Shown: positions 21,616-44,343 of the stretch, piece after piece
Layout of the letters: each line of letters begins with the position of its first letter
Position numbering within the stretch: position 1 is the stretch's first letter
IMG/VR virus record: IMGVR_UViG_3300008448_000067
Location: 1 to 64,000 of that record
Reading direction: 5' to 3' (one strand)
Length of the DNA: 64,000 bases
Source of the DNA: a virus
The notes under the pieces: generated by a model
Seen by the model: the letters and a program-made list of their open reading frames with translations, nothing else
The model's database searches: none
What the model was told of the DNA's origin: nothing
Position numbers and translations under genes: made by a program

Positions 21616-24234
21616 CTATCTATTCTCCAGATTAGTAATTTTTTCTTCTAAACTATTTATATGTGTCTGTTGTTCTTTGATTGCTTCAATCAGAAGAGCA
21701 ACCATATTACCATAAGCAACAGATAAAGTATCATCATCTCCGACTCCGCGTTGAACTACTTCTGGTATCACTTCAAGAACCTCCTGAGCAATTACACCAA
21801 TTTGTTTTTGTCCGGTGTCTTTTCGAGTATATGAATATCCATTTAATTTTAGAACTTTATCAAGCGCACATGTAATTTTTACAATGTCATCTTTCAGTTT
21901 GATATCAGAATATGCTGTTACATTGCCGAGCATAGTCAGATCGCCTGTACCAGTCATCTGGAAACAATTGTTTGATGCTGACCATCCACCTATTCTGAAA
22001 ACGTTATCAGTACCAAGTCCCATATTTATGGCGTATGTACTAGTTCTATGGAAGGACATCGCGGCAACGGTAGTTGAGTTGCCTCGAGCAGAAAATGAAC
22101 CTGTATCATTTGTAGTATTTACATTATTAGATCCGGATGTTGCTCCTGTGATTAATCCGGCCATTGTAACAGTATTTAAAGACGATGTACCATTAGGATT
22201 TGCATAATAATTAGTATCATCATTATCGTAATATATTGGTGATCGATGCTGAACGTATGAATACACAATCCCAGTAGCATCAATTAAGAAACGCGCCGCG
22301 TTTACTGTACTATCATAGACATAAAAATCTCTAGTATTGTCATTAGGAAGATCCACTCCGACTTCAAATTGTGTTGTGCCATTTTGAGCTAATCTAATAC
22401 CAGTGCGTTTATTAGCAGTGTTTGCTGTATTCAGACGAAGATATGTTTGATTAGAGCTATATAGCTCTAATAATTCTCCAGGATTGTTTGTTCCGATCCC
22501 GACGTTGCCTCCTGCGGCAATGCGCATCTTTTCAGTAGGTGTAGCACCCGATCCCGTCCAGAATTGCAGCGTCGGTGCTGAGCCACCTGCAGAAGAGATC
22601 ATCGCATAGCGATTATCAGATAGGTCAAACGCGCCAGAGATAAATTGCACAGCTCCGGTTGGAGAGCCAGAAGCATTGCGATTGTGGATAAGAACACCAG
22701 TTGTCCCGTCCTGATCTTTCCGAATATGCAAGGGTTGATCTGGTGCTTGCGTACCAATTCCGACCTTGTCAGTTAAAGCTATAATTGTTGAATTACTTAC
22801 AGTGCTAATACGAATTCCACCATTACCACCAGACCATGGAACAATGGAAAGGTTAGCATTACCAACAGTAGCACCAATAGTTAATATTACAGCATCACCC
22901 GAACTGGTTAAATTATTCCAAGAACCCGCGGGAGCACGAGGAACTAATCCTAAAGTCTGTGTTCCATTAATAGCACTAATAATATGATTAGCATTCGCTA
23001 CACCACTAGTATCAGTTGCAGCTATTTGGCCAGAAGATTTATTAAATGTTAATTGTGATACAGCATTCGCTACACCAGAATCATTAAAAATTACTTGAGT
23101 GTTTGATCCAGCGACTGGTCCAGTAGATCCTGTAAAACCAATATCACCTTTTGATCCAGCAAATCCTACTGATCCAGAGAATCCGATCGATCCTGCAAAT
23201 CCAACCGAGCCAACAAAACCTACAGATCCTGTAAAACCTGTAGACCCTACAGATCCTGTAAAGCCAATATCACCTTTTGATCCAGCAAATCCTACAGATC
23301 CGGTAAAGCCCGTAGATCCCGTAGAACCAGTAAATCCAATATCACCTTTTGATCCAACAAAACCTACAGATCCAGAGAATCCGATCGATCCAGTAAATCC
23401 TATAGAACCAGTAAATCCAACTGACCCAACGAATCCAACTGACCCAGTGAATCCTCTAGATCCTGTAAATCCTATAGATCCTGTAAATCCAACTGAGCCA
23501 ACAAAACCTACAGATCCAGTGAATCCGATCGATCCAGTAAATCCTATGGATCCAGTGAATCCTGCTGAACCTACAAATCCAGCACCAGTAGATCCTGTGA
23601 ATCCAATATCACCTTTTGATCCAACAAATCCTACAGATCCAGTAAAGCCAATATCACCTTTTGATCCTGTGAATCCAATATCACCTTTTGATCCAACAAA
23701 TCCTACAGATCCTGTGAATCCGATCGAGCCAGTAAATCCTATGGATCCAACGAATCCTACAGATCCTACAAATCCTACTGATCCAGTGAATCCTCTAGAT
23801 CCGACAAATCCAACTGAACCAGTAAATCCAGCACCAACAGAGCCTGTAAATCCAACACCTTGTGAACCTGTAAATCCTACTGATCCAGTAAATCCAGCTC
23901 CAGTTGACCCAGTAAATCCTGTGCCACCAGATCCGACAAATCCTACTGATCCAGTGAAGCCACCGCCAGTTGACCCAGTAAATCCTATGGATCCTGTGAA
24001 TCCAATTGATCCTACAAATCCAACTGAACCAGTAAAGCCTCCACCGGTTGAACCAGTAAAGCCAGTTCCACCAGATCCGACAAACCCTACTGATCCAGTA
24101 AAGCCAGCTCCTGCGCCCCAGTATGTTGATGTGCCATTACTAAGCAATGCCTGTCCGGATCCACCTATAGATCCATTCGCAAGAACGCCTTTTACAGATA
24201 AATTATTAAATAAATGAAGTGTATCTTTAGACAT
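21616..24234 (-). CDS. collagen-like tail fibre with C-terminal S74 intramolecular chaperone (872 aa)
   Basis: Residues 1-40 are an attachment region ending in GQALLSNGTSTYW. Residues ~40-373 are Gly-X-Y repeats of the GFTGS/GFVGS type with GDI interruptions and essentially no proline. A beta-rich shaft/receptor region follows from ~375 to 770. The last ~98 residues are an S74 peptidase/chaperone: YSDIKLKDDIVKI with the cleavage Ser at about 776, a GVIAQEVLEVIPEVV helix and a coiled-coil end. The chaperone trimerises the fibre and then cuts itself off. The start overlaps the end of the 410-residue gene by eight bases. Confidence 0.88.
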   Translation of the reverse strand: MSKDTLHLFNNLSVKGVLANGSIGGSGQALLSNGTSTYWGAGAGFTGSVGFVGSGGTGFTGSTGGGFTGSVGFVGSIGFTGSIGFTGSTGGGFTGSVGFVGSGGTGFTGSTGAGFTGSVGFTGSQGVGFTGSVGAGFTGSVGFVGSRGFTGSVGFVGSVGFVGSIGFTGSIGFTGSVGFVGSKGDIGFTGSKGDIGFTGSVGFVGSKGDIGFTGSTGAGFVGSAGFTGSIGFTGSIGFTGSVGFVGSVGFTGSIGFTGSRGFTGSVGFVGSVGFTGSIGFTGSIGFSGSVGFVGSKGDIGFTGSTGSTGFTGSVGFAGSKGDIGFTGSVGSTGFTGSVGFVGSVGFAGSIGFSGSVGFAGSKGDIGFTGSTGPVAGSNTQVIFNDSGVANAVSQLTFNKSSGQIAATDTSGVANANHIISAINGTQTLGLVPRAPAGSWNNLTSSGDAVILTIGATVGNANLSIVPWSGGNGGIRISTVSNSTIIALTDKVGIGTQAPDQPLHIRKDQDGTTGVLIHNRNASGSPTGAVQFISGAFDLSDNRYAMISSAGGSAPTLQFWTGSGATPTEKMRIAAGGNVGIGTNNPGELLELYSSNQTYLRLNTANTANKRTGIRLAQNGTTQFEVGVDLPNDNTRDFYVYDSTVNAARFLIDATGIVYSYVQHRSPIYYDNDDTNYYANPNGTSSLNTVTMAGLITGATSGSNNVNTTNDTGSFSARGNSTTVAAMSFHRTSTYAINMGLGTDNVFRIGGWSASNNCFQMTGTGDLTMLGNVTAYSDIKLKDDIVKITCALDKVLKLNGYSYTRKDTGQKQIGVIAQEVLEVIPEVVQRGVGDDDTLSVAYGNMVALLIEAIKEQQTHINSLEEKITNLENR
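21654..21661 (-). promoter_or_regulatory. late promoter inside the fibre C-terminus (TATAAATA)
   Basis: A perfect TATAAATA on the minus strand, within the codons for the final coiled coil of the S74 fibre, 41 bases before the 129-residue gene. Plausible driver of the 129-62-58-189 residue gene run. Confidence 0.55.
23113..24115 (-). repeat. Gly-X-Y (GFTGS-type) coding repeat block in the S74 fibre
   Basis: About 1 kb of 12-18 base near-repeats coding GFTGSxGFVGS units. The antisense reading gives long Pro/Asp/Asn-rich open frames that are not genes. Highly similar DNA occurs in two other fibre genes (33.5-36.5 kb and 43.3-43.8 kb). Confidence 0.9.
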
Positions 24235-25459
24235 TCGACATTGCTACCATTAAAGTATTTGCAATATTGTCTGACATATATCCAAATTCATTTGGATTTG
24301 AAACAAATACTGCGCTAGTAATATATTTATCGAACGCTACAGAAGATGTTATTATAGAATTTCCATTTCTGCTTACACTGATTCCATTGGCATTATAGTT
24401 AAATACTAGTTTATTTGTTGCTTGTTGAGATCCACAGTTAACTGTATTAATAAAAACATTGTTTGAAGAATCTATATAGATTTTATTATTAGAATTACTA
24501 GAATTTAAACTCAAGATAGTATTTCCCGCGGCGACTGCACTCCAATTAATATACATCGCGCCTTCATCTTGATCATACGTATGAAATGGTACATATTCTT
24601 TTAATTCAAAATCTTTAACATACAGTCTATTATTAATATCACCGAATCCGAATGATACATGAGCAGTATCTGAAGTAGCAGAAAATATGATAGAGAAAGA
24701 TGTATCAGTTGCAGTGGCAAAATATACACCATAGTTATCAATATTAAACTCAGTACCAATTTGTATTTTTGAAGGACCGGTGTCTCTGTCTTCTGGTGCA
24801 TATGAAATATTAGAGTCTGTAGTATAGTATGCATTTCCAGATAAGATATAATTTTTACCTGGTGACAGATTAAGTATTTGTGTTTGGCAATTATTCTTTT
24901 GTCCAGAAGAAACAATAACTTGATAGTCGTCATCTGCTACTAACAGACTTCCATTTGTAGCAGACCAGTCTGTTAGTATGTTGTTCTTTGTTTTTATAGG
25001 TCCCATCACACCGGAAGTAACATAAGCATTTGCATACGTAAATATGTTATTATTTGATTGGCGAATGGTGATATTATTAGCGCCGCTGAAATAAATCCCA
25101 AGTCCTTCTTCAGTGAGAATGTTTCTTCCGGAAAGAGTATTCTCAGAATATAAGTTGCATGCTATAGAATTTCTTTCAATACTAAATGTAGTTGGTATAG
25201 CAGTAGGAGTGACACTCACAGTGCCAACATTATTAGAAATAGACGTTACAAATTCGAGTGGAGTAATTCCAGATTTAGCCAAAGCAATTTGCTCTTCAGA
25301 AGTCTGAATTCCATCATGACTAATATCAAGTGTAGAATACCAACTAGTATTTCCAGATATTACATTGATTTTATAATAAATTATTTTTTCAGTTGGCAAA
25401 TCAAATGTATCTAGTATCTGTGCACTAAGAGTAGTAGAAGTGTAATTAATAGTTTCCAT
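24227..25459 (-). CDS. fibre-associated virion protein with lectin-like C-terminus (410 aa)
   Basis: ATG 25459 overlaps the TAA of the upstream 1611-residue gene (TAATG), so a longer frame to 25492 is not needed. The chain is beta-rich and Asn/Ser/Thr-rich. The last ~110 residues (NWSAVAAGNTILSLNSS, then KIYIDSSNNVFIN and NKLVFNYNANGISVSRNG) follow the strand pattern of concanavalin/LamG-like carbohydrate-binding domains. The middle has a second jelly-roll-like segment. No catalytic motif is evident. Likely a fibre or baseplate-attached adhesion protein, judged from fold pattern and neighbours. Confidence 0.7.
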   Translation of the reverse strand: METINYTSTTLSAQILDTFDLPTEKIIYYKINVISGNTSWYSTLDISHDGIQTSEEQIALAKSGITPLEFVTSISNNVGTVSVTPTAIPTTFSIERNSIACNLYSENTLSGRNILTEEGLGIYFSGANNITIRQSNNNIFTYANAYVTSGVMGPIKTKNNILTDWSATNGSLLVADDDYQVIVSSGQKNNCQTQILNLSPGKNYILSGNAYYTTDSNISYAPEDRDTGPSKIQIGTEFNIDNYGVYFATATDTSFSIIFSATSDTAHVSFGFGDINNRLYVKDFELKEYVPFHTYDQDEGAMYINWSAVAAGNTILSLNSSNSNNKIYIDSSNNVFINTVNCGSQQATNKLVFNYNANGISVSRNGNSIITSSVAFDKYITSAVFVSNPNEFGYMSDNIANTLMVAMSNV

Positions 25460-32147: not shown

Positions 32148-33167
32148 TTATGAATTAATAGCTACTCGCGATCGAGATTTATATTGAACAATAATCAAAC
32201 CATTGCCGCCACGGCCTCCATTACCACTCGCCGCTACAGCAGAGCCACCGGATCCACCGCCGCCGCCGGGCGATCCTAGTGCTCCGCCACCTACACCTCC
32301 GGTCGTGCCACTGTTATTTGTGCCACCTCCGCCACCACCACCGCCACCGGCACCGGTGGTGCCACTTGCTGGAGCTCCGTTTAAGAAGTTTTCAGTAAAC
32401 TGTGTTCCTTCACCACCGGCCGATCCTGCATATGCAGTTGCATTGTTAGTGTTGCGGCCATTTCCGCCGCCGCCGCCGCCTCCGTTTGTTCCAGCAGTTG
32501 ATGTTACACCACCGGTGCCGCCGGCCGCTCCTGCATAAGTTAAACCACCATTACCGCCAGTTGAGCCAGATCCATTACTACCAATTCCTCCGGTACCACC
32601 ACCGCCACCGCCTCCACCGTCAGCAGCGTTTGTTCCATTGCCACCCACACGACCAACACCTAATCCAGATCCAGCAGATCCTCCTCCGCCTCCTCCAGAT
32701 CCGGTAGTAGCTCCGCCAGATCCACCTGCACCACCCGCAACAGTTGTTGTACCAATTGCACCGGTAGTTGAACCACCAGCGCCGCCCGTTCCGCTCGATG
32801 CACCTGTCCCGCCATTCGCCAGAGCACCCTGAGCCGTTGTCGTTGGTGCAGTGTTTGCGCCTGAAGCATTCAACCATGTAACTCCACCGGCACCACCAGT
32901 ACCAGATGCTGTTGTTGCACCAGTTCCGCCTAATCCGATGTTAAAGTAAACCAGCTGGCCAGGAGTTAATTGTACAGCAGTAGATACAGAATATCCACCT
33001 CCGCCACCACCGCCCCAAGATGCACCATTGTTAGGACCTCTTGAACCGCCAGCTCCAGCACCAATAACTGTTATAGTAGCATTTGAAGTAACTTCTATAC
33101 CAGTCGGAACAGTCCAACTACTAAATCCAGTTGTTGTAAAAACTTCTACTATTACTATATCAGTCAT
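32148..33167 (-). CDS. glycine-rich adhesin-like tip protein (339 aa)
   Basis: An N-terminal beta segment (EVFTTTGFSSWTVPTGIEV, then ATITVIGAGAGG) leads into ~250 residues dominated by Gly runs (up to seven or more) alternating with Ser/Thr/Ala/Asn stretches, ending LIIVQYKSRSR. The pattern matches polyglycine-sandwich receptor-binding domains, of which T-even gp38 adhesins (glycine-rich motifs with hypervariable loops between) are the known model. The gene is much richer in G+C than its surroundings because of the glycine codons. The ATG overlaps the stop of the large collagen fibre gene (TAATG), suggesting it is the fibre's tip or adhesin. Confidence 0.72.
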   Translation of the reverse strand: MTDIVIVEVFTTTGFSSWTVPTGIEVTSNATITVIGAGAGGSRGPNNGASWGGGGGGGYSVSTAVQLTPGQLVYFNIGLGGTGATTASGTGGAGGVTWLNASGANTAPTTTAQGALANGGTGASSGTGGAGGSTTGAIGTTTVAGGAGGSGGATTGSGGGGGGSAGSGLGVGRVGGNGTNAADGGGGGGGGTGGIGSNGSGSTGGNGGLTYAGAAGGTGGVTSTAGTNGGGGGGGNGRNTNNATAYAGSAGGEGTQFTENFLNGAPASGTTGAGGGGGGGGGTNNSGTTGGVGGGALGSPGGGGGSGGSAVAASGNGGRGGNGLIIVQYKSRSRVAINS

Positions 33168-36100
33168 TACGTAAACCTCAACGTACCGTGTAGTTCATTA
33201 ACTGTGCCTGTAACTGCATTAACAGTGACCCATATAAACGAAGCAGCAGTTGGTGTACTGTTAGTAAATGATGTTAACGTATTACCATTTGTAGTATTAG
33301 AAATTGCCATATTACTTTGAATTACTGTTGCTGAAGCTCTACTATTACCCCACGAGAAAGTAACATTTGCATTCGGTGTGGTACCTCTGACTACAGTTCT
33401 TATTTCAGCTAATGTAAGTGCAGTATTAGACCAAAGAATTGTAACTTCATCGCCAGCACCCGGAGAAAGAATTGTAAACGATTTAGGCCCTAGCAACCCC
33501 TGAGATCCGACAAATCCTACAGATCCAGTAAAGCCAATAGATCCAGTAAACCCTACTGAGCCAGTAAATCCAATATCACCTTTTGATCCAACAAATCCTA
33601 CAGATCCTGTGAATCCAATAGACCCTACTGAGCCAGTAAATCCAATATCACCTTTTGATCCAACAAATCCTACAGATCCTGTGAATCCAATATCACCAAC
33701 TGATCCTGTAAATCCAGTACCGCCGGATCCGACAAATCCTACTGATCCAGTAAATCCAACTGAGCCGGTAAATCCTACAGATCCAGTAAATCCTATCGAA
33801 CCCGTGAATCCCACAGAGCCTGTAAATCCTGCTCCAGCTGAACCCGTAAATCCAGTTCCTCCAGATCCAACAAATCCTACTGAACCGGTGAAGCCAGCGC
33901 CGACAGATCCTGTAAATCCATTAGATCCTGGAGATCCGGTATAACCAATAGGAGCTAGACCGTCTGAATCAATCCATACATCATTAACTGCTGGAGATTC
34001 TGGTGCAGTTGTTTGTACAGTAATGCCTGTTGCACCTTTAGATCCAGTAAATCCAATCGATCCTGTAAATCCTGTACCACCAGAGCCAACAAATCCTACT
34101 GAACCAGTAAATCCAGCTCCAGCGGAACCAGTAAATCCGATCGATCCTGTAAATCCTTCAGATCCAACAAATCCTACTGAACCGGTAAATCCAGCACCAG
34201 CTGAACCCGTAAATCCAGTACCACCGGATCCTACAAATCCAACTGAACCAGTAAATCCAGCACCAGCTGAACCCGTAAATCCAGTACCGCCGGATCCGAC
34301 AAACCCAACTGATCCTGTAAATCCTGCTCCTACAGAGCCTGTAAATCCAGTTCCTCCAGAACCAACGAATCCTACTGATCCAGTAAATCCTGCGCCGGTT
34401 GATCCAGTAAATCCTATCGAACCCGTGAATCCATTCGATCCGGAAAATCCATTCGATCCAGCAGATCCAGTATAACCAACTGGCGTTGTTGCATCAGAAT
34501 CAACCCACAAATCATCTACAGCTGGAGCCACAGGAGCTGTAGATGATACTGTAATTCCTTTAGAACCAACAAACCCTACTGAACCAACAAATCCTACAGA
34601 CCCTGTAAATCCTATAGACCCTGTAAACCCTATGGATCCAGTAAATCCAGATGATCCTGTAAATCCTATAGACCCTGTAAATCCTATAGACCCTGTAAAC
34701 CCTACAGATCCTGTGAATCCAGATGATCCTGTGAATCCAGATGATCCAGTGAATCCTACAGATCCTGTGAATCCAGATGATCCTGTGAATCCAGATGATC
34801 CTGTGAATCCAGTAGAACCGGTAAACCCTACTGATCCAGTAAATCCAGACGATCCAGTGAATCCAGATGATCCAGAGAATCCTACAGATCCTGTGAATCC
34901 AGATGATCCTGTGAATCCAAGATTACCAACTCTTGAAAAATTGACTGCTAAAGTTGCTAAGTTTGTAGGTAATGATCCTGAAACATATGCCACTGGAATT
35001 TTATAATATCCAGCGCCAACAGTAACACCACCAGTCACATTGAATATATTGACTGTAGTACTTCCAGCAAGATTACCAATAATGGTTACTTGACCTCTCA
35101 CTGTATTGGTACTATCATCCCATGTATCATACCATGCAGTTTGAGTAACGCCCGCCGCGTCGATATTATCAATAAAGAGTTGTGTTACAGATGCTATATT
35201 AGTGTTACTATATGCAACAATACCATTGCCAGGATCAGCATCAGTAGTAGTGGTGGTGAATGCGTATCGAACACCACCTTTGTCACCCACAGATCCGACA
35301 AACCCTACTGATCCAGCGAATCCAACAGAACCAACGAATCCTACAGATCCAGAGAATCCTACTGATCCAGTGAATCCTGTAGATCCCGCAAATCCAACAG
35401 ATCCTGTAAATCCGATTGATCCCGCAAACCCAACAGACCCGACAAATCCAGTAGAACCAACAAATCCTACTGAGCCTGTAAATCCAACAGAGCCAGCGAA
35501 CCCTACTGATCCAGTAAATCCGATTGAACCGGTGAAGCCAGTTCCTGTAGATCCTGTAAAGCCTACAGATCCAACGAATCCAGCTCCTGTTGATCCGACA
35601 AAACCAACAGATCCAGTGAAGCCGGCTCCTGTTGATCCAGTGAATCCAACACCCTGTGAACCTGTAAATCCAACAGATCCAGTAAAGCCGGCTCCAGCAG
35701 ATCCTGTATATCCTAATGCACCAGTAGCACCAGATAAGTTAACAGTCCATGAAGAAAATGTACCAGAACCACTAGTTAGTGTAACGTTAACAATAAGCTG
35801 TCCAGTACCACTATTATAACTGGTAACAGTACCTTCCATGTAGTTATTGACATCGGCAACAATTTTAACTGGCTGAGTTGGTGTGTATGCTAAGTTTAAA
35901 CCAACAGTAAATGTTTTTGAGCCAGTTCCAATTGTGTTATTGGTAGAACTGGTAGTAAGATACGTATCACCCTTGGAGCCAGTGAAACCTGATGAGCCAG
36001 TGAAGCCAGTTCCTGTAGAACCAACAAATCCTACTGATCCAGTAAATCCTGTTCCAGTTGATCCTACAAATCCAACAGAGCCAGTAAAGCCTACACCCTG

Positions 36101-36754
36101 AGATCCTACGAATCCAACTGATCCAGTAAATCCTGTTCCAGTTGATCCTACAAATCCAACAGAGCCAGTAAAGCCTACACCCTGAGATCCTACAAATCCA
36201 ACTGATCCAGTAAAGCCAGCTCCAGCAGATCCTACAAACCCTACTGATCCAGAAAATCCTACTGACCCTGTGAATCCAGATGATCCAGTAAATCCTACAG
36301 ATCCTGTAAAGCCTATGGATCCAGTAAATCCAGCTGATCCATTAAACCCTACTGAACCAGTGAATCCTCTCGAACCGTCAAACCCTTTTGATCCAACAAA
36401 TCCAGTTCCAGTAGATCCTGTAAATCCAGCTGATCCATTAAACCCTACTGAACCAGTGAATCCATCTCCGCTTCCACCACCAGTACGCCAATATACTGTA
36501 GTTCCATTAGAACTAAGTACTTGGCCATTTGATCCAACAGCACCATTGGCTACAATAGATTGTACAGAAAGAGTTGAAAGATTACTACCAACTTCAAAAA
36601 CAACACTGCCATTCGACACGTGAATTTTTTGATCAGTCAAGTTAATGGCTAACTCGCCGGGATAAATATATTGGGTATTTGCGGTATTAGCCGCTTCTGG
36701 CAATCGCCCTGAAACTGAAGTTCTTTTATGAACAATAGGTATCGTATTTGCCAT
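33167..36754 (-). CDS. large collagen-like tail fibre (1195 aa)
   Basis: ATG 36754 gives MANTIPIVHKRTSVSGRLPE; a longer frame to 36790 would run through the leader. Residues 1-95 are an attachment domain ending GQVLSSNGTTVYW, like the S74 fibre. Residues ~96-1088 are proline-poor Gly-X-Y blocks (GFTGS, GFVGS), broken by two larger beta inserts (about residues 265-340 and 490-610) and two short, mutually similar ones (VDDLWVDSD, VNDVWIDSD). A ~105-residue beta domain ends the chain. There is no S74 chaperone, so the glycine-rich protein encoded next may act as tip. A late promoter lies at 36817-36824. Confidence 0.85.
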   Translation of the reverse strand: MANTIPIVHKRTSVSGRLPEAANTANTQYIYPGELAINLTDQKIHVSNGSVVFEVGSNLSTLSVQSIVANGAVGSNGQVLSSNGTTVYWRTGGGSGDGFTGSVGFNGSAGFTGSTGTGFVGSKGFDGSRGFTGSVGFNGSAGFTGSIGFTGSVGFTGSSGFTGSVGFSGSVGFVGSAGAGFTGSVGFVGSQGVGFTGSVGFVGSTGTGFTGSVGFVGSQGVGFTGSVGFVGSTGTGFTGSVGFVGSTGTGFTGSSGFTGSKGDTYLTTSSTNNTIGTGSKTFTVGLNLAYTPTQPVKIVADVNNYMEGTVTSYNSGTGQLIVNVTLTSGSGTFSSWTVNLSGATGALGYTGSAGAGFTGSVGFTGSQGVGFTGSTGAGFTGSVGFVGSTGAGFVGSVGFTGSTGTGFTGSIGFTGSVGFAGSVGFTGSVGFVGSTGFVGSVGFAGSIGFTGSVGFAGSTGFTGSVGFSGSVGFVGSVGFAGSVGFVGSVGDKGGVRYAFTTTTTDADPGNGIVAYSNTNIASVTQLFIDNIDAAGVTQTAWYDTWDDSTNTVRGQVTIIGNLAGSTTVNIFNVTGGVTVGAGYYKIPVAYVSGSLPTNLATLAVNFSRVGNLGFTGSSGFTGSVGFSGSSGFTGSSGFTGSVGFTGSTGFTGSSGFTGSSGFTGSVGFTGSSGFTGSSGFTGSVGFTGSIGFTGSIGFTGSSGFTGSIGFTGSIGFTGSVGFVGSVGFVGSKGITVSSTAPVAPAVDDLWVDSDATTPVGYTGSAGSNGFSGSNGFTGSIGFTGSTGAGFTGSVGFVGSGGTGFTGSVGAGFTGSVGFVGSGGTGFTGSAGAGFTGSVGFVGSGGTGFTGSAGAGFTGSVGFVGSEGFTGSIGFTGSAGAGFTGSVGFVGSGGTGFTGSIGFTGSKGATGITVQTTAPESPAVNDVWIDSDGLAPIGYTGSPGSNGFTGSVGAGFTGSVGFVGSGGTGFTGSAGAGFTGSVGFTGSIGFTGSVGFTGSVGFTGSVGFVGSGGTGFTGSVGDIGFTGSVGFVGSKGDIGFTGSVGSIGFTGSVGFVGSKGDIGFTGSVGFTGSIGFTGSVGFVGSQGLLGPKSFTILSPGAGDEVTILWSNTALTLAEIRTVVRGTTPNANVTFSWGNSRASATVIQSNMAISNTTNGNTLTSFTNSTPTAASFIWVTVNAVTGTVNELHGTLRFT
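33496..36465 (-). repeat. Gly-X-Y (GFTGS-type) coding repeat blocks in the large fibre
   Basis: About 3 kb of short near-identical units in several blocks between globular inserts. Runs such as 34.6-34.9 kb are almost exact 15-18 base repeats, a substrate for slippage and recombination with the similar blocks at 23.1-24.1 and 43.3-43.8 kb. Confidence 0.9.
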
Positions 36755-36798
36755 ATGGTCTCTTCTGCAGATATATATCTTGTGCATCAACTATTTAG

Positions 36799-36826
36799 TT
36801 GACATTTATTTAAAACTATTTATAAT
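36799..36826 (+). promoter_or_regulatory. sigma70-consensus early promoter for the glycosyltransferase gene
   Basis: TTGACA (36799-36804), 16 bases, TATAAT (36821-36826): 12 of 12 consensus positions. The start is predicted at about 36833, only a few bases before ATG 36836, so the message would be essentially leaderless. The -10 overlaps the opposite-facing late promoter. Confidence 0.75.
36817..36824 (-). promoter_or_regulatory. late promoter for the large collagen fibre (TATAAATA)
   Basis: A perfect TATAAATA on the minus strand, 63 bases before the fibre ATG. It shares four bases with the -10 of the divergent sigma70 promoter, so the two polymerase forms should compete for the site. Confidence 0.8.
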
Positions 36827-36835
36827 GGATCTAAT

Positions 36836-39800
36836 ATGAAGATTGCTTTTATTGATACACTTGGCTTGACGTATGATGGATCTACTCTTTCAAAGAGAGG
36901 TCTAGGTGGATCCGAATCTGCTGTAATTCGTATGGCTCATGAGTTAGCTCAAATTGGATTTGATGTTACAGTATTTAATGATTGCACGTCTGATGAATCA
37001 CAATCTGGTATATATCATGGAGTTACGTACACTCCGCTTGAAGCTGCTACAATAGCTCAAACTCCATTTGATGTTTGTATAGTTTCTAGATCCATTCGGC
37101 CATATTTCGAAAGCTGGTATGTTTGTGCAACAGCACGACATAAAGTTCTCTGGATGCATGATACCTTCTGTGAAGGTGATAATGAAATTGAAAATCTTAT
37201 TGTCCAGGGAAAAATTGATGAAATCTTTACTCTTTCTGATTGGCACACTGGTTACGTAACGCACGCAGATCATGGTCGGCGACGTAACTTTGATATTCTA
37301 AAAAATCATATCTTTATGACTCGCAACGGAATCGGGAATATGAATCCCGGTTGGATTGATGTTCGTGAAAAAGATCCAGATCTATTTGTATTCAATGCTT
37401 CAGTCACAAAGGGCATGGTTCCACTTGTCAAGCAAATCTGGCCAAAAGTAAAAGAACGTATTCCACAGGCAAAACTTAAGATTGTTGGTGGATACTATAA
37501 GTTTCGTGAAGCTTCTGGTCCAGATCAACAACAAAAAGACTGGACAGAAATGTCCTTACAGCATGGTAAAAATATAGATTTTACTGGAGTAATTACTCAA
37601 CAAGAGATTTCCGATATTTTGCGTGAAGCAAGTTATATGATTTATCCGGTTGGGTTTCCAGAAACATTTGGTATCTCAACACTCGAAGCACTAGCTCACA
37701 ACGTTCCACTTATTACATGCCGGTTCGGCGCTCTCGAAGAGACTGCTATTGATCTTGCTTCATGGAAGATTAACTATCCAGTCGAGCCAAATTGGGCTTT
37801 ACCATGGCTTGATCAAAATTCACAGGTAGATATTTTTGTTGACGCAGTAGTGAATGCGTATAATAACAAGTATCTGCATCAACAAAAAATGTATGCTTGT
37901 AATCAAGTCAAAGATATTTGCACCTGGGATACTGTTGCTCTACAGTGGAAGCAGCATCTCTATCATAAGCTCGGTGAATACCTGCCTGTTGATGAATATC
38001 GTAAGGTAACAAAGATCAACGACAAGGTTCGTAGAGTATTCAACCGGCGATTCTTGAATAAAGAAGAGATGCGTGAATCATGCCAAAGTCCTTTTTGGCC
38101 AATCTCGATTATTACACCGGTCTATAATGCAGAGAATTATATTGTAAAATGTATTGCTTCTGTTGCACAACAGGACTATCATAACTACGTGATGCATATC
38201 ATCGATGATTGCTCTACTGACAATACGGCGCAAGTAGCACAAGAGTATATTGACTCTTTACCAGAGGATATTCGATATAACTTTGTTCTTCATAGAAACG
38301 GTGAAAACCTTGGAGCCGTCTGCAATCAGGTGAACACCATCGAAAAAGAGTGTGGCCATGATATAGTCATGCTACTTGATGGAGATGATTGGCTGATCAA
38401 CGATCCGAATCTATTCCATAAGTACAATAACCTCTACAATGAAGGCGCAGAGTTTACTTACGGATCTTGTTGGTCTGTAGTAGATAGTATTCCTCTCATT
38501 GCTCAGGAGTATCCACCTGAAGTAAAGAAATCAAAGACATATCGAGATTATAAATTTAATTGGAATATGCCATACACTCACCTGCGTACATTTAAAGCTC
38601 ATTTGATGCATGACTTTTTGCGGGCAAATGGTAACTATGCGTTCAGAGATGAAGATGGCAATTGGTTGAAGGCGGGTGGAGACACTGCAGTATTCTATTC
38701 AATGATTGAGGCTGCTGATCCGGATAACGTCGTATGTGTTTCTGATATTGTGTATAATTATAATGATGCTAATCCACTTAATGATTATAAAGTCAATTCT
38801 ACTGAACAAACAAAAACTGCTACTAAAGTATTGAATAAAATTCCAAAGATTAAATCTAAAGACTATAGTGCAATATTACAAAGATTAAGAGAGCTTCATG
38901 ATCAACGATTGCTCCCACAACAACACGTAGATTATTTGTGGAAAATGAAGAACACGGGTGTTGAGCCAAAAGTAATTTACGATATTGGTGCCTGTGTTCT
39001 TCATTGGACAAACAGAGCTAAACAAGTATGGCCGAACTCCAAATTTATTCCTATTGAAGCAATGGAGGAAGTTGGTGAATTATATGCTGAAAGTGGATTT
39101 GATCAATACGTAGCCGGCTGCATACTCAGTGATAAGCAAGAAGAAGTATACTTCTATGAAAATCTAGAGCACCCAGGCGGCAATTCTTTATTTAAAGAAA
39201 ATGCTCAATTATCGCCTCGGGCAGAAGAACTTTTTCCGGAAACTAGCAAAGTAAAAAGAACTACACAAACACTCGATAACATCGTTAATATTATGAATTT
39301 GCCAAAGCCTGATCTGATTAAAATGGATATACAAGGCGCAGAATTAAGTGTATTAAAAGGTGCGCACAATACTCTTACACACTGTAATCATTTAATACTA
39401 GAATTACAGCATGTTGACTATAACTTCGGAGCGCCGAAAGCTCAAGAAGTAATTGAATATCTAAAAACTATTGGATTCAATCTTGTGAACGATGGAATGT
39501 TTTGTGAAGGTGATCTTAAAGTAGACGGTGATTATCACTTTGTCAAGGAAAATAAAAATACTTTAAAAGATGATGAACAAAAGTTTTCTGTAGTAGTTCC
39601 TACTATGTGGAAGTGTGATCAATTTAAAGACACTCTTCAAAAATTAATTGACTGTGATGTTGTTGATGAAATCATGATATATGATAACAATCCAACGGCC
39701 GCATTTGATCTGCCTGAAAGTAAAAAGATTGTATTACTGGGCACTGGAAAAAATGATTATGTAAATCCAGTTTGGAATGAGTGTACTAAGCGAGCTAAGA

Positions 39801-41551
39801 ATGATTACGTCTTACTCTTGAATGATGATATCGATTTTGAAATGGATATTTTTGAGAAAGTAAGACCATTTGTTGCTAATACAAATAATGGAGTTATAGG
39901 ACTGTGCGCTGGATTAGAGCAATTTAATCAGCCAGTAGTTACGGATGGTTCTATCGATATCATCGTACCTCCTCAGGGATATCACCATTTTGGTTTTGGT
40001 TGTTTGATGTTTGTCAACAAGAAAAACTGGAAAGATATTCCGAAAGAACTAAAGGTTTACTTCGGGGATTACTATATCTGGGATTACTGCATAACTCAAA
40101 ATAAACAGCCATACATTATTACTAACTTTGCTTACACTACAAAATGGGCCCAAACCACCGGTGCTATTTACAACGAAATATCTGAAATGCATGAATTTGA
40201 AAAGAAAGCATACGAGAATATTTTACACGATCTACATTCAGGCGAAACAAGAGAGGAAGTTAACATTACTAAAAATATTTTGATCGCTATTCCATGTAAG
40301 AATGATATCGAAGCTGATACCTTTAAATCAATCTATGATCTCATTATTCCAGAAGGATACAAAGCTCATTTCCAGTACTTTTATGGCTATGCTGTAGATC
40401 AGGTACGTAACCTTATTGCTGAATGGACTATAAAGGGATATGATTATCTATTTGCAGTAGATCACGATATTGTCTTTGCTCCGGATACTCTACAGAAGTT
40501 GTTAGATGCAAAGAAGCCTATTGTATCTGGAATCTATCGTCAAAGACTCGAAAAGCAAACAATTGAAGTTTATGATCGTGATTATCGTCATCTTCAATAT
40601 GAAGATCTTCATGGCAAGGGATTGATAGAAATTGGTGGGTGTGGATTTGGATGCGTACTTGTTCAAAAAGAAGTTTTCGCTAACTTAAAATATCCACACT
40701 TTGTATATCATCAGGCCTTAAATCACGCTAATACTTTTAGTGAAGATCTTGATTTTTGCAAAAAAGCAAGAGAAAAAGGTTATACCATTTGGTGTGATAC
40801 GTCAATAGTATGTGGACATGTTGGCCAAAAAATCTGGTTGCCAGAATTACCAAAGACAGAACCAGAAGTATCACCACAACTTGCTCGCTTGCGTGAATTG
40901 CGTAACATGGATCTGTTTCCACAAGACCATGTTGACTATTTAAAGAGTTTGAAAAAGAGTGGATTTAATCCAAAAGTAATTTACGATATCGGAGCGTGTG
41001 TTCTTCATTGGACAGATAAAGCTCGTACGATTTGGCCAGATGCTAAGTACGTTGCATTTGATGCTATGGACGCCGCGCAGTTAATTTATCAAGAAGACGG
41101 CCTCGCATACGCATGCGGTGTTCTTGGAAGTGAAGATAATAAAGAAGTAGACTTCTGGGAAAATACAGATAACCCTGGTGGCAATTCAGTTTATAAAGAA
41201 AATATTGAATTAAGTCCGCTCGCAGATCAATTATATAGTAAGCCAGTTAAAAAGTTAACTGGAAAACTAGATACTGTTATTAAGATGTTTGATTTCCCTA
41301 CACCAGATCTTATTAAGATGGATGTTCAGGGTTCTGAATTAAATGTTCTGAAAGGAGCAACTAATACTCTTAAAAATTGTGATCACATCATTTTAGAAAT
41401 GCAAAGCGTGGATTATAATAAAGGTGCACCAAAAGTGCAAGAAGTTATCAAGTATCTGAATTCTATCGGGTTTGAAAACAAGTCAGGCATGTTCTCTGGT
41501 AATGATATCGATGGCGATTATCACTTTGTTAGAAAGTTCCGCCGTCAATAG
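36836..41551 (+). CDS. six-module glycosyltransferase / FkbM methyltransferase protein (1571 aa)
   Basis: The only plus-strand gene. Modules in order: GT4-type GT-B glycosyltransferase (1-385; GLGGSES near 22-28, FPETFGISTLEAL 274-286); GT2 family GT-A (422-650; ITPVYN, DDCS, LLDGDDW 513-519); FkbM-type SAM methyltransferase (682-903; VIYDIGACVLHW 713-724, DLIKMDIQGAEL 826-837); second GT-A-like (916-1110; VVVPT, LLNDDID 994-1000); third GT-A-like (1146-1335; IAIPCKN, AVDHDI 1207-1212); second FkbM module (1349-1569). There is no signal peptide or membrane segment, so it should act in the cytoplasm. The start is fixed by MKIAFIDTLG, the usual opening of phage GT4 proteins. Probable substrates are fibre proteins or host glycans (inference). 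Confidence 0.88.
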   Translation: MKIAFIDTLGLTYDGSTLSKRGLGGSESAVIRMAHELAQIGFDVTVFNDCTSDESQSGIYHGVTYTPLEAATIAQTPFDVCIVSRSIRPYFESWYVCATARHKVLWMHDTFCEGDNEIENLIVQGKIDEIFTLSDWHTGYVTHADHGRRRNFDILKNHIFMTRNGIGNMNPGWIDVREKDPDLFVFNASVTKGMVPLVKQIWPKVKERIPQAKLKIVGGYYKFREASGPDQQQKDWTEMSLQHGKNIDFTGVITQQEISDILREASYMIYPVGFPETFGISTLEALAHNVPLITCRFGALEETAIDLASWKINYPVEPNWALPWLDQNSQVDIFVDAVVNAYNNKYLHQQKMYACNQVKDICTWDTVALQWKQHLYHKLGEYLPVDEYRKVTKINDKVRRVFNRRFLNKEEMRESCQSPFWPISIITPVYNAENYIVKCIASVAQQDYHNYVMHIIDDCSTDNTAQVAQEYIDSLPEDIRYNFVLHRNGENLGAVCNQVNTIEKECGHDIVMLLDGDDWLINDPNLFHKYNNLYNEGAEFTYGSCWSVVDSIPLIAQEYPPEVKKSKTYRDYKFNWNMPYTHLRTFKAHLMHDFLRANGNYAFRDEDGNWLKAGGDTAVFYSMIEAADPDNVVCVSDIVYNYNDANPLNDYKVNSTEQTKTATKVLNKIPKIKSKDYSAILQRLRELHDQRLLPQQHVDYLWKMKNTGVEPKVIYDIGACVLHWTNRAKQVWPNSKFIPIEAMEEVGELYAESGFDQYVAGCILSDKQEEVYFYENLEHPGGNSLFKENAQLSPRAEELFPETSKVKRTTQTLDNIVNIMNLPKPDLIKMDIQGAELSVLKGAHNTLTHCNHLILELQHVDYNFGAPKAQEVIEYLKTIGFNLVNDGMFCEGDLKVDGDYHFVKENKNTLKDDEQKFSVVVPTMWKCDQFKDTLQKLIDCDVVDEIMIYDNNPTAAFDLPESKKIVLLGTGKNDYVNPVWNECTKRAKNDYVLLLNDDIDFEMDIFEKVRPFVANTNNGVIGLCAGLEQFNQPVVTDGSIDIIVPPQGYHHFGFGCLMFVNKKNWKDIPKELKVYFGDYYIWDYCITQNKQPYIITNFAYTTKWAQTTGAIYNEISEMHEFEKKAYENILHDLHSGETREEVNITKNILIAIPCKNDIEADTFKSIYDLIIPEGYKAHFQYFYGYAVDQVRNLIAEWTIKGYDYLFAVDHDIVFAPDTLQKLLDAKKPIVSGIYRQRLEKQTIEVYDRDYRHLQYEDLHGKGLIEIGGCGFGCVLVQKEVFANLKYPHFVYHQALNHANTFSEDLDFCKKAREKGYTIWCDTSIVCGHVGQKIWLPELPKTEPEVSPQLARLRELRNMDLFPQDHVDYLKSLKKSGFNPKVIYDIGACVLHWTDKARTIWPDAKYVAFDAMDAAQLIYQEDGLAYACGVLGSEDNKEVDFWENTDNPGGNSVYKENIELSPLADQLYSKPVKKLTGKLDTVIKMFDFPTPDLIKMDVQGSELNVLKGATNTLKNCDHIILEMQSVDYNKGAPKVQEVIKYLNSIGFENKSGMFSGNDIDGDYHFVRKFRRQ
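38879..39544 (+). repeat. first copy of the duplicated FkbM methyltransferase module
   Basis: Encodes residues 682-903 of the glycosyltransferase protein. Shares with the second copy the series VIYDIGACVLHWT, PGGNS, DLIKMD-x-QG-x-EL, LKGA-x-NTL, VDYN-x-GAPK-x-QEVI and DGDYHFV. It includes the preceding LRELHDQ...HVDYL helix as part of the repeat. Confidence 0.85.
40880..41542 (+). repeat. second copy of the duplicated FkbM methyltransferase module
   Basis: Encodes residues 1349-1569. It has the same order of conserved segments as the copy at 38879-39544, starting LARLRELRNMDLFPQDHVDY. Both copies retain the SAM-site glycine region and the DLIKMD motif, so both may be active. Confidence 0.85.
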
Positions 41552-41741
41552 TACCAATTATGTAAGTAGCATCTAATGGTGTTACATCATATTTGTTAGT
41601 ATTGGAATTATATACAAGAGTAGCACCATTTACTCCGTTTGCTACATTCACATCTGGTATGTCTTCAATAGTAGTAATAGTAGTTAAACCAGTTCTAGCA
41701 AATATTTTTGTGTCCTGCGTCAACTTTGCTCTATAGTTCAT
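41529..41741 (-). CDS. small structural-cluster protein overlapping the glycosyltransferase end (70 aa)
   Basis: Unrecognised 70-residue protein (MNYRAKLTQDTKIFARTGLT, then a Gly/Asn/Asp-rich beta-like half: NGATLVYNSNTNKYDVTPLD). The second half resembles the short beta motif in which many phage fibre proteins describe a 'data' strand. Its ATG overlaps the stop of the 109-residue gene by four bases (ATGA). Its last 23 bases are shared, tail to tail, with the plus-strand glycosyltransferase gene. It is the last gene of the leftward run that starts at 48.5 kb. Confidence 0.65.
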   Translation of the reverse strand: MNYRAKLTQDTKIFARTGLTTITTIEDIPDVNVANGVNGATLVYNSNTNKYDVTPLDATYIIGTIDGGTF

Positions 41742-42067
41742 CGTGTGACCCCTGGAGTTACTGTAACAATACCCTCAATTATTCTAATAATAGTACCAAC
41801 ATCGCTCGTTAGTTCACAATCATACATATATCGCCCTGGTGAAATAGTATTTGTGGTATTAGCACTCATAGATAGAGTAACAACTCCGGTTGTTGGAGAA
41901 ATAGAAGTTGAAAATGAGTATGCTGTTAACGAAGTGTAATGCTTACGCATTTGAGCATTGGCAGTATAGCCAGTAAGATTAATAACGTCATCATTATCGT
42001 CAGTCACTTCAACGGTTGCGCTAAAGCTAGCACCTTGATCAATTACCATGTTTGCTTTAAGTGACAT
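41738..42067 (-). CDS. conserved-type small virion protein (109 aa)
   Basis: Ig-like beta protein: MVIDQGASFSATVEVTDDND, then VINLTGYTANAQMRKHYTS, GVVTLSMSANTTNTISPGRY and YDCEL. Proteins with 'DQGxxFxxxVxVxDDxxxxxxLxGYTxxAQxRKxY' occur as small structural proteins in marine T4-like phages; the precise role is unknown to me. It is flanked by coupled junctions on both sides (TAAATG and ATGA). Confidence 0.72.
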   Translation of the reverse strand: MSLKANMVIDQGASFSATVEVTDDNDDVINLTGYTANAQMRKHYTSLTAYSFSTSISPTTGVVTLSMSANTTNTISPGRYMYDCELTSDVGTIIRIIEGIVTVTPGVTR

Positions 42068-42598
42068 TTATTCTTCCATTAAGTTGATTACGTATGCTTT
42101 TAAACCGCTCGCATCAGCCTTGAGTTTAAAACCAATACTATTAGGATCGTTTATAACTACAGGTGTATCATAGTATTTATTAAAAGATCCGAAGTGAGTT
42201 CCAACTGCAATTGCGGCAGGAGATTCAGGATTGAATAATGTTATCAATCCTGCGAATCCTTCACTTCTTACATACTCTGAATTTTTTTGTTGGAACTCTT
42301 CTGAATACCACCAGGCTCGAGAACCAGATTCTGATTGACCATAAATTGGATGCCTATGGAACATATATAACTTTCTATCATATTTAAAATCATTATAACT
42401 TGCAATCCCAACAGTATAATCATTTACATCATAGCGAATGATAGGATAATCTTTGAGATCATCTATTAAAGCCGCTTTCAGAGCAACATCTCCCATGCGC
42501 TGTCGCTCTTTTGAAATATATGCATATGCTTCATTATATAGTCTATTTAAAAGCTCGTCAGATAGATCTTCAGCATAAACTTTGGTAAGAGTTAACAT
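42068..42598 (-). CDS. unrecognised protein in fibre/baseplate cluster (176 aa)
   Basis: Mixed alpha/beta protein; N-terminal LSDELLNRLYNEAYAYISKE helix, then DYPIIRYDVNDYTVGIASY, KLYMFHRHPIYGQSESGSR, AWWYSEEF and a C-terminal PAAIAVGTHFGSF segment. The alternation of strands and helices and the 'R-x-M-x-x-R-H-P-x-Y-G' patch hint at an acyltransferase-like (GNAT-type) fold, but no acetyl-CoA motif can be shown, so no function is assigned. It could be a modifying enzyme placed among structural genes. The stop abuts the next gene (TAAATG). Confidence 0.7.
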   Translation of the reverse strand: MLTLTKVYAEDLSDELLNRLYNEAYAYISKERQRMGDVALKAALIDDLKDYPIIRYDVNDYTVGIASYNDFKYDRKLYMFHRHPIYGQSESGSRAWWYSEEFQQKNSEYVRSEGFAGLITLFNPESPAAIAVGTHFGSFNKYYDTPVVINDPNSIGFKLKADASGLKAYVINLMEE

Positions 42599-42607: not shown

Positions 42608-43144
42608 TTATACAAGCTGAACATTATGTATTTCGTTATCAGCACCAAATGGATTTGTAGTTGGAACCGTGTCTCCATTATCATTGAACCATAGAAATGT
42701 AGTAGAATTGCTTCCACCATCATATGTCCCAGGTACTGCATTTGTAATGACTGATCCATCAAATAAAATTGATTTAGATCCGGCTACATTTCCTGGTAAT
42801 CGTACATTAAACTTATAATCAGGTTGGCTAACATCATAAAAAGTACTTTGCCAGTAACACGAATATGGAGCAAGATCTATGATCGAGCCATCATAACTTC
42901 CATATGGTCCATATGAATCACCGCTGTCATAGCCATGTTCTGATATAATATAACCTTCAGTTCCTTTACCGCCGGGCTGAAGGAAACCATCATTCCCAGT
43001 AGTAATACTACAGTTTAAGAATTCTTTCCAAGCAGAACCATTCCAAACTTTAGCACCTTTTGCTTCTAGCCAAGAAGATCCGTTCCAAGCTTTTTTTTGA
43101 GGAGCTAAAACCCAAGAAGATCCATTCCATGCATATAATGCCAT
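42608..43144 (-). CDS. WNGSxW-module virion protein (178 aa)
   Basis: Three WNGSxW modules in the first 45 residues (AWNGSSWVLA, AWNGSSWLEA, VWNGSAWKEF), related to the N-termini of the 1611- and 331-residue fibre proteins. The remaining ~130 residues are Gly/Ser/Tyr/Asp-rich and beta-like (YGPYGSYDGS, LFDGSVITNAVPG, FLWFNDNGDTVP). There is no enzyme motif. The ATG overlaps the stop of the collagen-like 399-residue protein. Likely a fibre or baseplate accessory that uses the WNG modules for docking (inference). Confidence 0.7.
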   Translation of the reverse strand: MALYAWNGSSWVLAPQKKAWNGSSWLEAKGAKVWNGSAWKEFLNCSITTGNDGFLQPGGKGTEGYIISEHGYDSGDSYGPYGSYDGSIIDLAPYSCYWQSTFYDVSQPDYKFNVRLPGNVAGSKSILFDGSVITNAVPGTYDGGSNSTTFLWFNDNGDTVPTTNPFGADNEIHNVQLV

Positions 43145-44343
43145 TAGATCTTAATCCAAATATCGCCTTGGTTAGAAGCGGTTGGTGTGCCAGATTGAAC
43201 AAATACTTGTCCACCACTAGTATATCCACTGGTTACATGTCTAAGAATAGGAGCAGCTGCTGTTGCTGCATCTCCCTTAGATCCAGTAAATCCAGTTCCA
43301 CCAGCAGTACCTTGTGATCCAACGAATCCTGTAGCACCCTGTGATCCAGTGAATCCAGTAGCACCAGTATTTCCTACTGAACCAGTGAAGCCAGTAGCAC
43401 CGGTTCCACCAGTTCCACCAGCAGTACCCTGTGAACCAGTAAATCCAGTAGTACCAGGATCACCAATGGTTCCTCGTGAACCGGTAAAGCCAGTCCCACC
43501 GTTTGTTCCAGCAGTACCCTGTGATCCAGTAAATCCGGTAGCACCAGTAGAACCAGGATCACCAATGGTTCCTCGCGATCCAGTAAATCCAGTTCCACCA
43601 GTTCCACCAGCAGTACCTTGTGATCCAGTAAATCCAGCGCCTACTGATCCAGTAAATCCGGTTCCACCAGTTCCACCAGCAGTACCTTGTGATCCAACAA
43701 ATCCTGTAGATCCAATAGAACCAGTAAATCCAGTTCCACCAGTAGAACCAGCAGAACCAGTCCAACCAATATTACCCTGTGATCCAGTAAATCCTATAGA
43801 TCCAGCCGATCCTGTAAAGCCTATTGAACCTGTAAAACCAGCGCCTTGTACCCAAGAAACGTTGAATCCATCAGTTTTTAAATAATAACCTGGTAAACCT
43901 GTTTGAGTTGGCAAAAGATTATTAATTGCAGTAACTGCTGTATTTCCACCGGTGCCACCACGAAGAACTGGTAAAATACCATCACCAACTGATGATGCAT
44001 TTACATAAAGCCCGGTAGAATTTGCTATAATACCAGATTGCGCTCTGATATTAATTAAAACACCGTTTGCAGTAACAATAGAATTAGCGAAATAGAGATT
44101 TCCAGCATAAACATCAAATGTTCTACTAGTGTTACCCAGAGCTTTACCGTTAGCAGTAGGAATTAAGTCGCCTGCAATAGATGTGTTACTATAGGTAAGA
44201 TTCCCAGTAACGTTTAAGTCACCTTCTACACTGAGCGTTTGCTTAACAATGGCGTGAGCATTGATCGTGGCGTTTGCTTGAAACAGCGAAACACCATCTG
44301 TTACTAACAATCCATTATCGATTTTAAAATTAGTATTCGCCAT
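43144..44343 (-). CDS. short collagen-like fibre (399 aa)
   Basis: Residues 1-165 form a beta-rich N-terminal part with the phage 'node' pattern NFKIDNGLLVTDGVSLFQ, SVEGDLNVTGNLTYSN and GNLYFANSIVTANG, common in marine phage fibres. Residues ~168-360 are Gly-X-Y repeats with GFTGSQGTAGGTGGT variants. The C-terminal ~35 residues (FVQSGTPTASNQGDIWIKI) match the short inserts of the large collagen fibre (DDLWVDSD type). It differs from the other two collagen-like fibres in using more Thr-Gly-Gly units. Coupled on both sides. Confidence 0.8.
   Translation of the reverse strand: MANTNFKIDNGLLVTDGVSLFQANATINAHAIVKQTLSVEGDLNVTGNLTYSNTSIAGDLIPTANGKALGNTSRTFDVYAGNLYFANSIVTANGVLINIRAQSGIIANSTGLYVNASSVGDGILPVLRGGTGGNTAVTAINNLLPTQTGLPGYYLKTDGFNVSWVQGAGFTGSIGFTGSAGSIGFTGSQGNIGWTGSAGSTGGTGFTGSIGSTGFVGSQGTAGGTGGTGFTGSVGAGFTGSQGTAGGTGGTGFTGSRGTIGDPGSTGATGFTGSQGTAGTNGGTGFTGSRGTIGDPGTTGFTGSQGTAGGTGGTGATGFTGSVGNTGATGFTGSQGATGFVGSQGTAGGTGFTGSKGDAATAAAPILRHVTSGYTSGGQVFVQSGTPTASNQGDIWIKI
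43268..43840 (-). repeat. Gly-X-Y coding repeat block in the short fibre
   Basis: Tandem units coding GFTGSQGTAGGTGGT- and GFTGSRGTIGDPGTT-type segments, with long stretches repeated nearly exactly (for example around 43440-43480 and 43550-43600). Confidence 0.85.

What the first reader, a model, noticed from the sequence alone, without database searches (positions are those of the whole stretch)
36836..41551. Single-chain glycan assembly line: four glycosyltransferase-like and two methyltransferase-like modules in one phage protein
Seen: one 1571-residue plus-strand frame with, in order, GT4, GT2, FkbM methyltransferase, GT-A-like, GT-A-like and FkbM methyltransferase signatures, each with recognisable nucleotide-sugar or SAM motifs. 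Known: phage glycosyltransferases and FkbM enzymes are normally separate proteins acting on DNA bases, host O-antigen or virion proteins. Inferred: fused modules could act in sequence to build a short, twice-methylated glycan. The gene is on the opposite strand to all others, embedded between fibre blocks.
Basis: partly seen in the sequence, partly recalled or inferred. Interest (0 to 1): 0.9.

Follow-up and report, generated by a model that had tools for sequence, protein, structure and literature searches.

The report
Phage glycan-building modular enzyme beside fibres
A T4-like water phage carries one giant protein of four sugar-transferring and two methyl-transferring units, one of a large family whose units are swapped, split and re-fused between viruses, and which sits next to collagen-like tail-fibre genes whose products it most likely coats with short methylated sugar chains.

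Summary
Window 36836-41551 (+) is one intact 1571-aa ORF with the order GT4, GT2, FkbM, GT-A, GT-A, FkbM. Signature residues are invariant across relatives, and pN is far below pS in every module. It is not an isolated curiosity: at least 192 IMG/VR stretches encode relatives. A GT4-GT2 core, always fused, is followed by GTy, with optional GTx, FkbM, extra GT4 or GT25 units, as one chain or as two genes overlapping by ATGA; fused/split changes at least 8 times on the core tree. The window protein is a recombinant: residues 1-902 resemble L004, 915-1571 resemble L010. Its exact six-module order is seen only in this virus.

New lead on function: the cassette sits beside collagen-like (Gly-Phe-Thr-Gly-Ser) tail fibres on the opposite strand. 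In 47 T4-like records found by an unrelated gene, cassette and motif co-occur: 14 both, 0 cassette only, 4 motif only (all at contig ends), 29 neither. Foldseek's best PDB hits for the two GT-A units are collagen glycosyltransferases (LH3, mimivirus R699), though this is not specific. I propose O-glycosylation of Thr/Ser in the fibre repeats. Host-surface modification, the published view for such phage GTs, is the main rival. No biochemistry exists.

The parts
36836..38020 (+). module 1, GT4 (GT-B fold) glycosyltransferase, aa 1-395
   Evidence: Pfam; AlphaFold + VIA-align Z 30.2 to MshA; E276-x7-E284 invariant 84/84
38069..38905 (+). module 2, GT2 (GT-A) glycosyltransferase, aa 412-690
   Evidence: Pfam; PDB sequence matches GalT1, chondroitin synthase; D515xD517D518 invariant 76/76
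38906..39610 (+). module 3, FkbM methyltransferase FkA, aa 691-925; L004-like
   Evidence: 53% identical to FkB
39611..40270 (+). module 4, GTx, GT-A-like glycosyltransferase, aa 926-1145
   Evidence: AlphaFold GT-A fold; N996-D997-D998 and D1078 invariant 15/15; no Pfam hit
40271..40870 (+). module 5, GTy, GT-A glycosyltransferase, aa 1146-1345; found in every relative whose contig is not cut off
   Evidence: phrog_1574/34859; STIV A197 Z 19.8, Mnn9 16.9, COLGALT1 16.6; DxD, ED, H invariant 72/72
40889..41548 (+). module 6, FkbM methyltransferase FkB, aa 1352-1571; L010-like
36799..36826 (+). perfect sigma-70-type promoter match TTGACA-N16-TATAAT, ending just before the cassette ATG (candidate early promoter; very short or no leader)
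   Evidence: only 12/12 match in the region scanned; function inferred
36817..36824 (-). T4-type late promoter TATAAATA for the divergent fibre gene, overlapping the cassette promoter
   Evidence: TATTTATA present in 37 of 41 relatives' upstream regions; 8 on - strand, none on + strand of window
33167..36790 (-). collagen-like tail fibre, at least 204 Gly-X-Y triplets, mostly GFT/GSV; likely start ATG near 36754; proposed acceptor
43144..44343 (-). second collagen-like fibre (63 triplets, GFT/GGT)
21616..24234 (-). collagen-like fibre (98 triplets) ending in a Peptidase_S74 chaperone; Pfam Collagen 5.5e-32
41738..42067 (-). LtfC-like / L-shaped fibre assembly gene just downstream of the cassette, conserved there in several relatives

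Best explanation
A virion-modification enzyme. The protein is the single-chain form of a modular phage cassette that builds short, methylated O-linked glycans on Thr and Ser residues of the phage's own collagen-like GFTGS tail fibres. GT4-GT2 and GTy lay down the conserved core sugars; GTx adds another; the two FkbM units O-methylate sugars, probably capping them. Shown: GT and FkbM assignments of all six modules, intact signature residues, purifying selection, module trading, genomic pairing with GFTGS fibres. Inferred: acceptor, linkage, order of reactions, sugars, and early expression from the TTGACA/TATAAT site so that the enzyme is present when late fibres are made. Likely benefits (inferred): stabilising proline-poor triple helices, altering adsorption, or shielding fibres; swapping units changes the glycan quickly.
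For: Cassettes found by their own sequence: 25 of 30 with >=1.5 kb upstream have a collagen-like GFTGS-type fibre ORF there, all 25 on the opposite strand, 22 within 1 kb; downstream 16 of 17, all opposite. T4-like records found by a VrlC-like gene (phrog_358): 14 cassette+motif, 0 cassette only, 4 motif only (all at contig ends; one, L208, is this same virus cut off), 29 neither; Fisher 9e-9, uncorrected for relatedness. Fibre-anchor or neighbour-gene relatives without GFTGS have no cassette in the stretches read, even where other Gly-X-Y repeats occur. In reverse, 33 of 67 records with GFTGSxGFTGSxGFTGS carry the core. Foldseek's top PDB hits of GTx-GTy are collagen glycosyltransferases LH3 and mimivirus R699; COLGALT1 matches GTy at Z 16.6; relative L057 adds a GT25-family module. 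Y-position Thr 33-49% and nearly no Pro in the window repeats. Precedent: C. difficile SgtA, encoded immediately upstream of collagen-like BclA3, O-GlcNAcylates Thr/Ser of its repeats (PMC7157674).
Against: No acceptor, sugar or methylation was measured. Both cassette and fibres lie in the hypervariable host-recognition region, so linkage could be positional. GFTGS/GYTGS fibres exist without the cassette, e.g. G035 (115.8 kb record, 39 motifs in one ORF, no cassette and no GT2). LH3/R699 matches have low TM-scores (<=0.36) and rmsd ~20 A because domain placement differs; GTy alone matches STIV A197 best. Association counts are not phylogenetically independent. A sigma-70-like (early-type) promoter fits host modification at least as well.
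Confidence: 0.58

Rival explanations
1. The cassette modifies the host cell surface (O-antigen/LPS or capsule) early in infection, blocking superinfection or receptor competition; its place among fibres reflects co-selection of host-recognition genes.
For: Published reading for GTs in the host-recognition cluster of T4-like pelagimyophages (PMC7029224). Sigma-70-type promoter. GT4, GT2 and FkbM are common in surface-glycan pathways (established knowledge).
Against: No membrane GT, flippase or polymerase was found in the cassette; pairing is with GFTGS fibres rather than with fibres in general; tandem GT-A units rank nearest to collagen glycosyltransferases.
Confidence: 0.22
2. The cassette glycosylates another virion protein (capsid, tail tube or a non-collagen fibre domain), as in mycobacteriophages.
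For: Phage virion glycosylation on capsid and tail-tube subunits is established (Freeman et al. 2023, as cited in PMC12619734; the paper itself is not held).
Against: Conserved neighbours are fibres, not capsid genes; T4-like records with the VrlC-like gene but no GFTGS fibre lack the cassette.
Confidence: 0.12
3. The enzyme hypermodifies phage DNA.
For: Some phage GTs do so (literature cited in PMC12619734).
Against: The GT4+GT2+two GT-A+FkbM architecture and the linkage to fibres do not fit; base-modifying partners outside the window were not looked for.
Confidence: 0.03
4. The six-module fusion is a recombinational accident in which some modules no longer matter.
For: Mosaic origin; this exact order is seen in one virus only.
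Against: All signature residues kept in all six modules; pN 0.08-0.17 against pS 0.51-0.86 for each module versus its closest relative.
Confidence: 0.05

Closest known systems
Chlorovirus PBCV-1 A064R and A111/114R (PMC7826918)
   Same: Virus-encoded single chains with several GT domains; A064R is GT-GT-methyltransferase and methylates the terminal sugar of a virion glycan
   Different: Three domains, eukaryotic virus, N-glycan on the capsid; here four GT and two FkbM, phage, split/fused variants, collagen-like fibres as proposed acceptor; sequence kinship was not tested
C. difficile SgtA/BclA3 (PMC7157674)
   Same: GT gene beside a collagen-like protein gene; O-glycosylation of Thr/Ser in Gly-X-Y repeats
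   Different: One GT-A domain in a bacterium; glycan extension by other, unidentified enzymes
Collagen glycosyltransferases LH3/PLOD3, COLGALT1, mimivirus R699 (PMC9546862, PMC11838735)
   Same: Tandem Rossmann/GT-A folds (LH3, R699) acting on collagen; top Foldseek PDB hits for GTx-GTy
   Different: Act on hydroxylysine or galactosylhydroxylysine; the phage repeats have few Lys; domain arrangement differs (rmsd ~20 A)
Glycosyltransferases in the host-recognition cluster of pelagimyophages (PMC7029224)
   Same: T4-like aquatic phages, GT genes among tail fibres
   Different: Reported as LPS-type GTs (GT8 most common), interpreted as host O-chain modification; no collagen link and no multi-module chain in the passages read
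Uncultured Caudovirales proteins A0A6J5T3W3 and A0A6J5M7M7
   Same: Large GT/FkbM chains, 44-48% identical over GTx-GTy
   Different: Database entries without functional study; full module order not examined here

Membership tests
FkbM methyltransferase (PF05050) | Domain score over Pfam cut-off and conserved acidic/SAM motifs | tested here: met
   Two separate matches over cut-off; D716, G718, K829, D831, E836 invariant 50/50. The usual GANxGxxT is GACVLHWT here; activity untested
GT4 glycosyltransferase | GT-B fold with E-x7-E | tested here: met
GT2 glycosyltransferase | PF00535 over cut-off, DxD | tested here: met
GT-A fold glycosyltransferase (GTx, GTy) | GT-A fold and metal-binding DxD-type motif | tested here: met
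   AlphaFold, Foldseek and VIA-align; GTy DxD/ED/H and GTx NDD invariant; CAZy family unassigned
Collagen glycosyltransferase (LH3/R699/COLGALT type) | Tandem GT-A domains in the LH3 arrangement | tested here: inconclusive
   Both domains match and these are the top Foldseek hits, but TM <=0.36 and rmsd ~20 A
Collagen glycosyltransferase (LH3/R699/COLGALT type) | Transfer of sugar to collagen hydroxylysine or its galactose | not testable with these tools
   Needs an enzyme assay; Lys is rare in the repeats, so Thr/Ser would have to be the acceptor
SgtA-BclA3-like collagen O-glycosylation system | GT gene adjacent to a Thr-rich Gly-X-Y repeat protein gene | tested here: met
SgtA-BclA3-like collagen O-glycosylation system | O-glycan on repeat Thr/Ser | not testable with these tools
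   Needs glycopeptide MS
Phage O-antigen conversion (Gtr) system | gtrA flippase and membrane gtrB/gtrC partners | not tested
   Scanned neighbours are fibre/baseplate genes or unknowns and none was called gtrA, but the rest of the genome is not held and small ORFs were not scanned; the GT2 module does match phrog_841 'GtrB-like' weakly (5e-7)

The most novel reading that the evidence does not exclude
Aquatic T4-like phages carry a dedicated collagen-glycosylation system: a recombining, collinear GT/methyltransferase assembly line that decorates Thr/Ser in proline-poor triple-helical tail fibres with methylated oligosaccharides, its module set acting as a quickly exchangeable glycan code on the virion.
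Probability: 0.42. Interest if true: 0.82.

Novelty: new variant of a known kind. Interest (0 to 1): 0.64.

Why it matters
Phage glycosyltransferases near fibres are commonly read as host O-antigen modifiers. A predictable pairing with GFTGS collagen-like fibres gives a testable alternative that would extend protein O-glycosylation of collagen repeats to phages, could explain how proline-poor phage collagens stay stable or evade recognition, and offers a natural series of swapped, fused and split GT modules for studying how glycan assembly lines evolve.

Tried and rejected
Chance ORF or assembly artefact: rejected (second contig at 100% nt covering nearly all of the ORF, relatives, pN<<pS). 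FkA/FkB as a local duplication in this phage: rejected; they belong to two FkbM lineages found C-terminally in other phages. Cyanophage host: no psbA in 14 related records, but all are fragments, so not decisive. S-TIM5 GT next to a fibre: that fibre has no GFTGS. DNA similarity of the fibre to isolate phages: only short matches to a few Listeria, Microvirus and Staphylococcus records. The strict double-motif DNA pattern was too narrow for the co-occurrence table; it was replaced by the single motif, whose reversed-pattern control gave zero. FkA folded poorly (pLDDT mostly under 65), so its fold rests on Pfam. L063's extra methyltransferase-like module is below Pfam's cut-off and is not counted as identified. 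The gp15-anchored set was mostly short fragments and was not used for the co-occurrence test. The original papers on PBCV-1 A064R (PMC7682578) and mycobacteriophage virion glycosylation (PMC10527164) are not held.

Full report
What is there. ORF 36836-41551 (+) is intact, 1571 aa. Pfam assigns GT4, GT2 and two FkbM domains. The two modules without a Pfam hit over cut-off, GTx and GTy, fold as GT-A domains (AlphaFold on an alignment of 35 sequences, pLDDT 82.7, pTM 0.52). The GT4 part matches GT-B enzymes (MshA Z 30.2). Metal- and sugar-binding signature residues are invariant in the relatives read for every module, and the window keeps all of them. pN against pS per module is strongly purifying.

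The virus. PHROGs gives a T4-like structural block: major head, scaffold, portal, sheath, terminase, baseplate wedges. The major head protein is 61-63% identical to those of Stenotrophomonas phage DLP_6, Pelagibacter phage Mosig and Methylophilales phage Melnitz. The host is unknown. The record is a 68.5 kb virus record. Stretches at 100% nucleotide identity occur in IMG/VR records of three sample numbers. The cassette lies in what has been called the host-recognition cluster of T4-like aquatic phages, a fibre-bearing variable island within the structural genes in which glycosyltransferases are common (PMC7029224).

A family of architectures. 192 IMG/VR stretches encode relatives; the best 80 were read, plus 22 more. 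Module HMMs give 20 architecture strings, some of them due to cut-off contigs or unassigned stretches. The order GT4-GT2-(FkbM)-(GTx)-GTy-(FkbM) is kept whether the parts are one chain or two genes. GT4 and GT2 are always in one chain where both are present, and GTy follows. The commonest form is GT4-GT2 | GTy-FkbM, with an ATGA overlap at the gene boundary in most split loci read. L057 adds a GT25 domain and L063 a weak Methyltransf_24-like domain, so other six-module chains may exist with different parts. On a tree of the GT4-GT2 core, fused versus split changes at least eight times. L011 and L023 have nearly identical cores but different downstream sets.

Origin of the window protein. Nucleotide matches run to L004 up to residue 654 (79%), then to L004's C-terminal FkbM for residues 684-902 (71%), then to L010 from residue 915 to the end (74%). 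The FkbM tree agrees: FkA groups with L004/L028, FkB with L010/L026/L047. So the six-module order arose by recombination, and FkA's place after GT2 need not reflect reaction order. A scan with the FkA-GTx stretch returned only this virus (L003) and two loci without FkA in that place (L010 and L083). L022 independently has FkbM after GT2 but splits afterwards.

The acceptor. Three neighbouring fibres on the - strand are collagen-like, with G-F-T-G-S-(V/I/S/T) repeats, Thr in 33-49% of Y positions and almost no proline. Relatives show the same neighbourhood: an upstream collagen-type fibre in 25 of 30 distinct cassettes, all on the opposite strand, and 16 of 17 downstream. Those figures come only from loci found by the cassette itself. 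As a control I took 47 T4-like records found by the VrlC-like gene 48511-53841: cassette and GFTGS go together in 14, neither in 29 (one of these has a single motif), motif alone in 4, cassette alone in none. The four motif-only records have the motif at a contig end, and one (L208) is this same virus broken off before the cassette. Many of the 'neither' records are fragments or more distant, so the Fisher value (9e-9), which also ignores relatedness, overstates the case. Relatives of the window's fibre N-terminus or of neighbour 42068-42598 divide the same way. The association is not absolute: G035 has 39 motifs in one fibre ORF and no cassette on 115.8 kb.

Structure hint. For GTx-GTy the highest Foldseek PDB hits are human LH3, the LH3/ColGalT1 complex and mimivirus R699, all collagen glycosyltransferases with two GT-A-like domains; STIV A197 is tenth. 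Re-aligned, GTy alone is closest to A197 (Z 19.8), then Mnn9 and COLGALT1. TM-scores are low because the two domains are arranged differently. I treat this as suggestive only.

Expression. The cassette's ATG is preceded by the only 12/12 sigma-70 match in the region, overlapping on the other strand a T4-type late promoter for the fibre. TATTTATA is kept in 37 of 41 relatives; a relaxed -35/-10 match is found in 17 of 41. This suggests early enzyme and late fibre (inference).

Mechanism proposed. Core sugars by GT4, GT2 and GTy on Thr/Ser of GFTGS triplets, optional extension by GTx or other GTs, O-methylation by FkbM. The bacterial precedent is SgtA on BclA3 repeats; the viral precedent for GT-GT-methyltransferase chains is PBCV-1 A064R. 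What each module transfers is unknown.

Novelty. The parts are known, multi-domain viral GT/methyltransferases are known, and fused relatives are already deposited without comment. What I did not find in the papers searched is the collinear, recombining cassette and its pairing with collagen-like phage fibres. I file it as a new variant of a known kind, with the collagen-glycosylation reading as the exciting but unproven case.

Noticed in passing
window 36787-36802: Short inverted repeat (TCAACTA-TT-TAGTTGA) between the divergent promoters; in relatives the arms change together (e.g. ACACTATTTAGTGT), so a hairpin at the 5' end of the fibre mRNA or an operator is possible.
   Followed up: partly
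window 36817-36836: The sigma-70-like -10 box ends just before the cassette ATG, so the mRNA may be nearly leaderless, whereas L010, L011, L047 and L054 have a Shine-Dalgarno-like spacer there.
   Followed up: partly
window 25459-30294: 1611-aa protein with no PHROG match and no Pfam match (E <= 0.01) in the fibre block; its sequence suggests two repeated beta-rich halves.
   Followed up: no
window 44351-46192: 613-aa Asn/Thr-rich fibre-like protein with internal ~200-nt repeats and no PHROG or Pfam match.
   Followed up: no
window 42068-42598: 176-aa protein without a Pfam or PHROG match, kept beside fibres in other phage contigs with and without the cassette.
   Followed up: partly
L276, L278: Relatives with a second GT4 module, as GT4-GT4-GT2-GTy in one chain (L276) or as a separate GT4 ORF on the same strand (L278).
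   Followed up: partly
L200 (S-TIM5) 12419-15438: Cultured cyanophage S-TIM5 has a GTy-like gene near a fibre on the opposite strand, but that fibre has no GFTGS repeats.
   Followed up: yes
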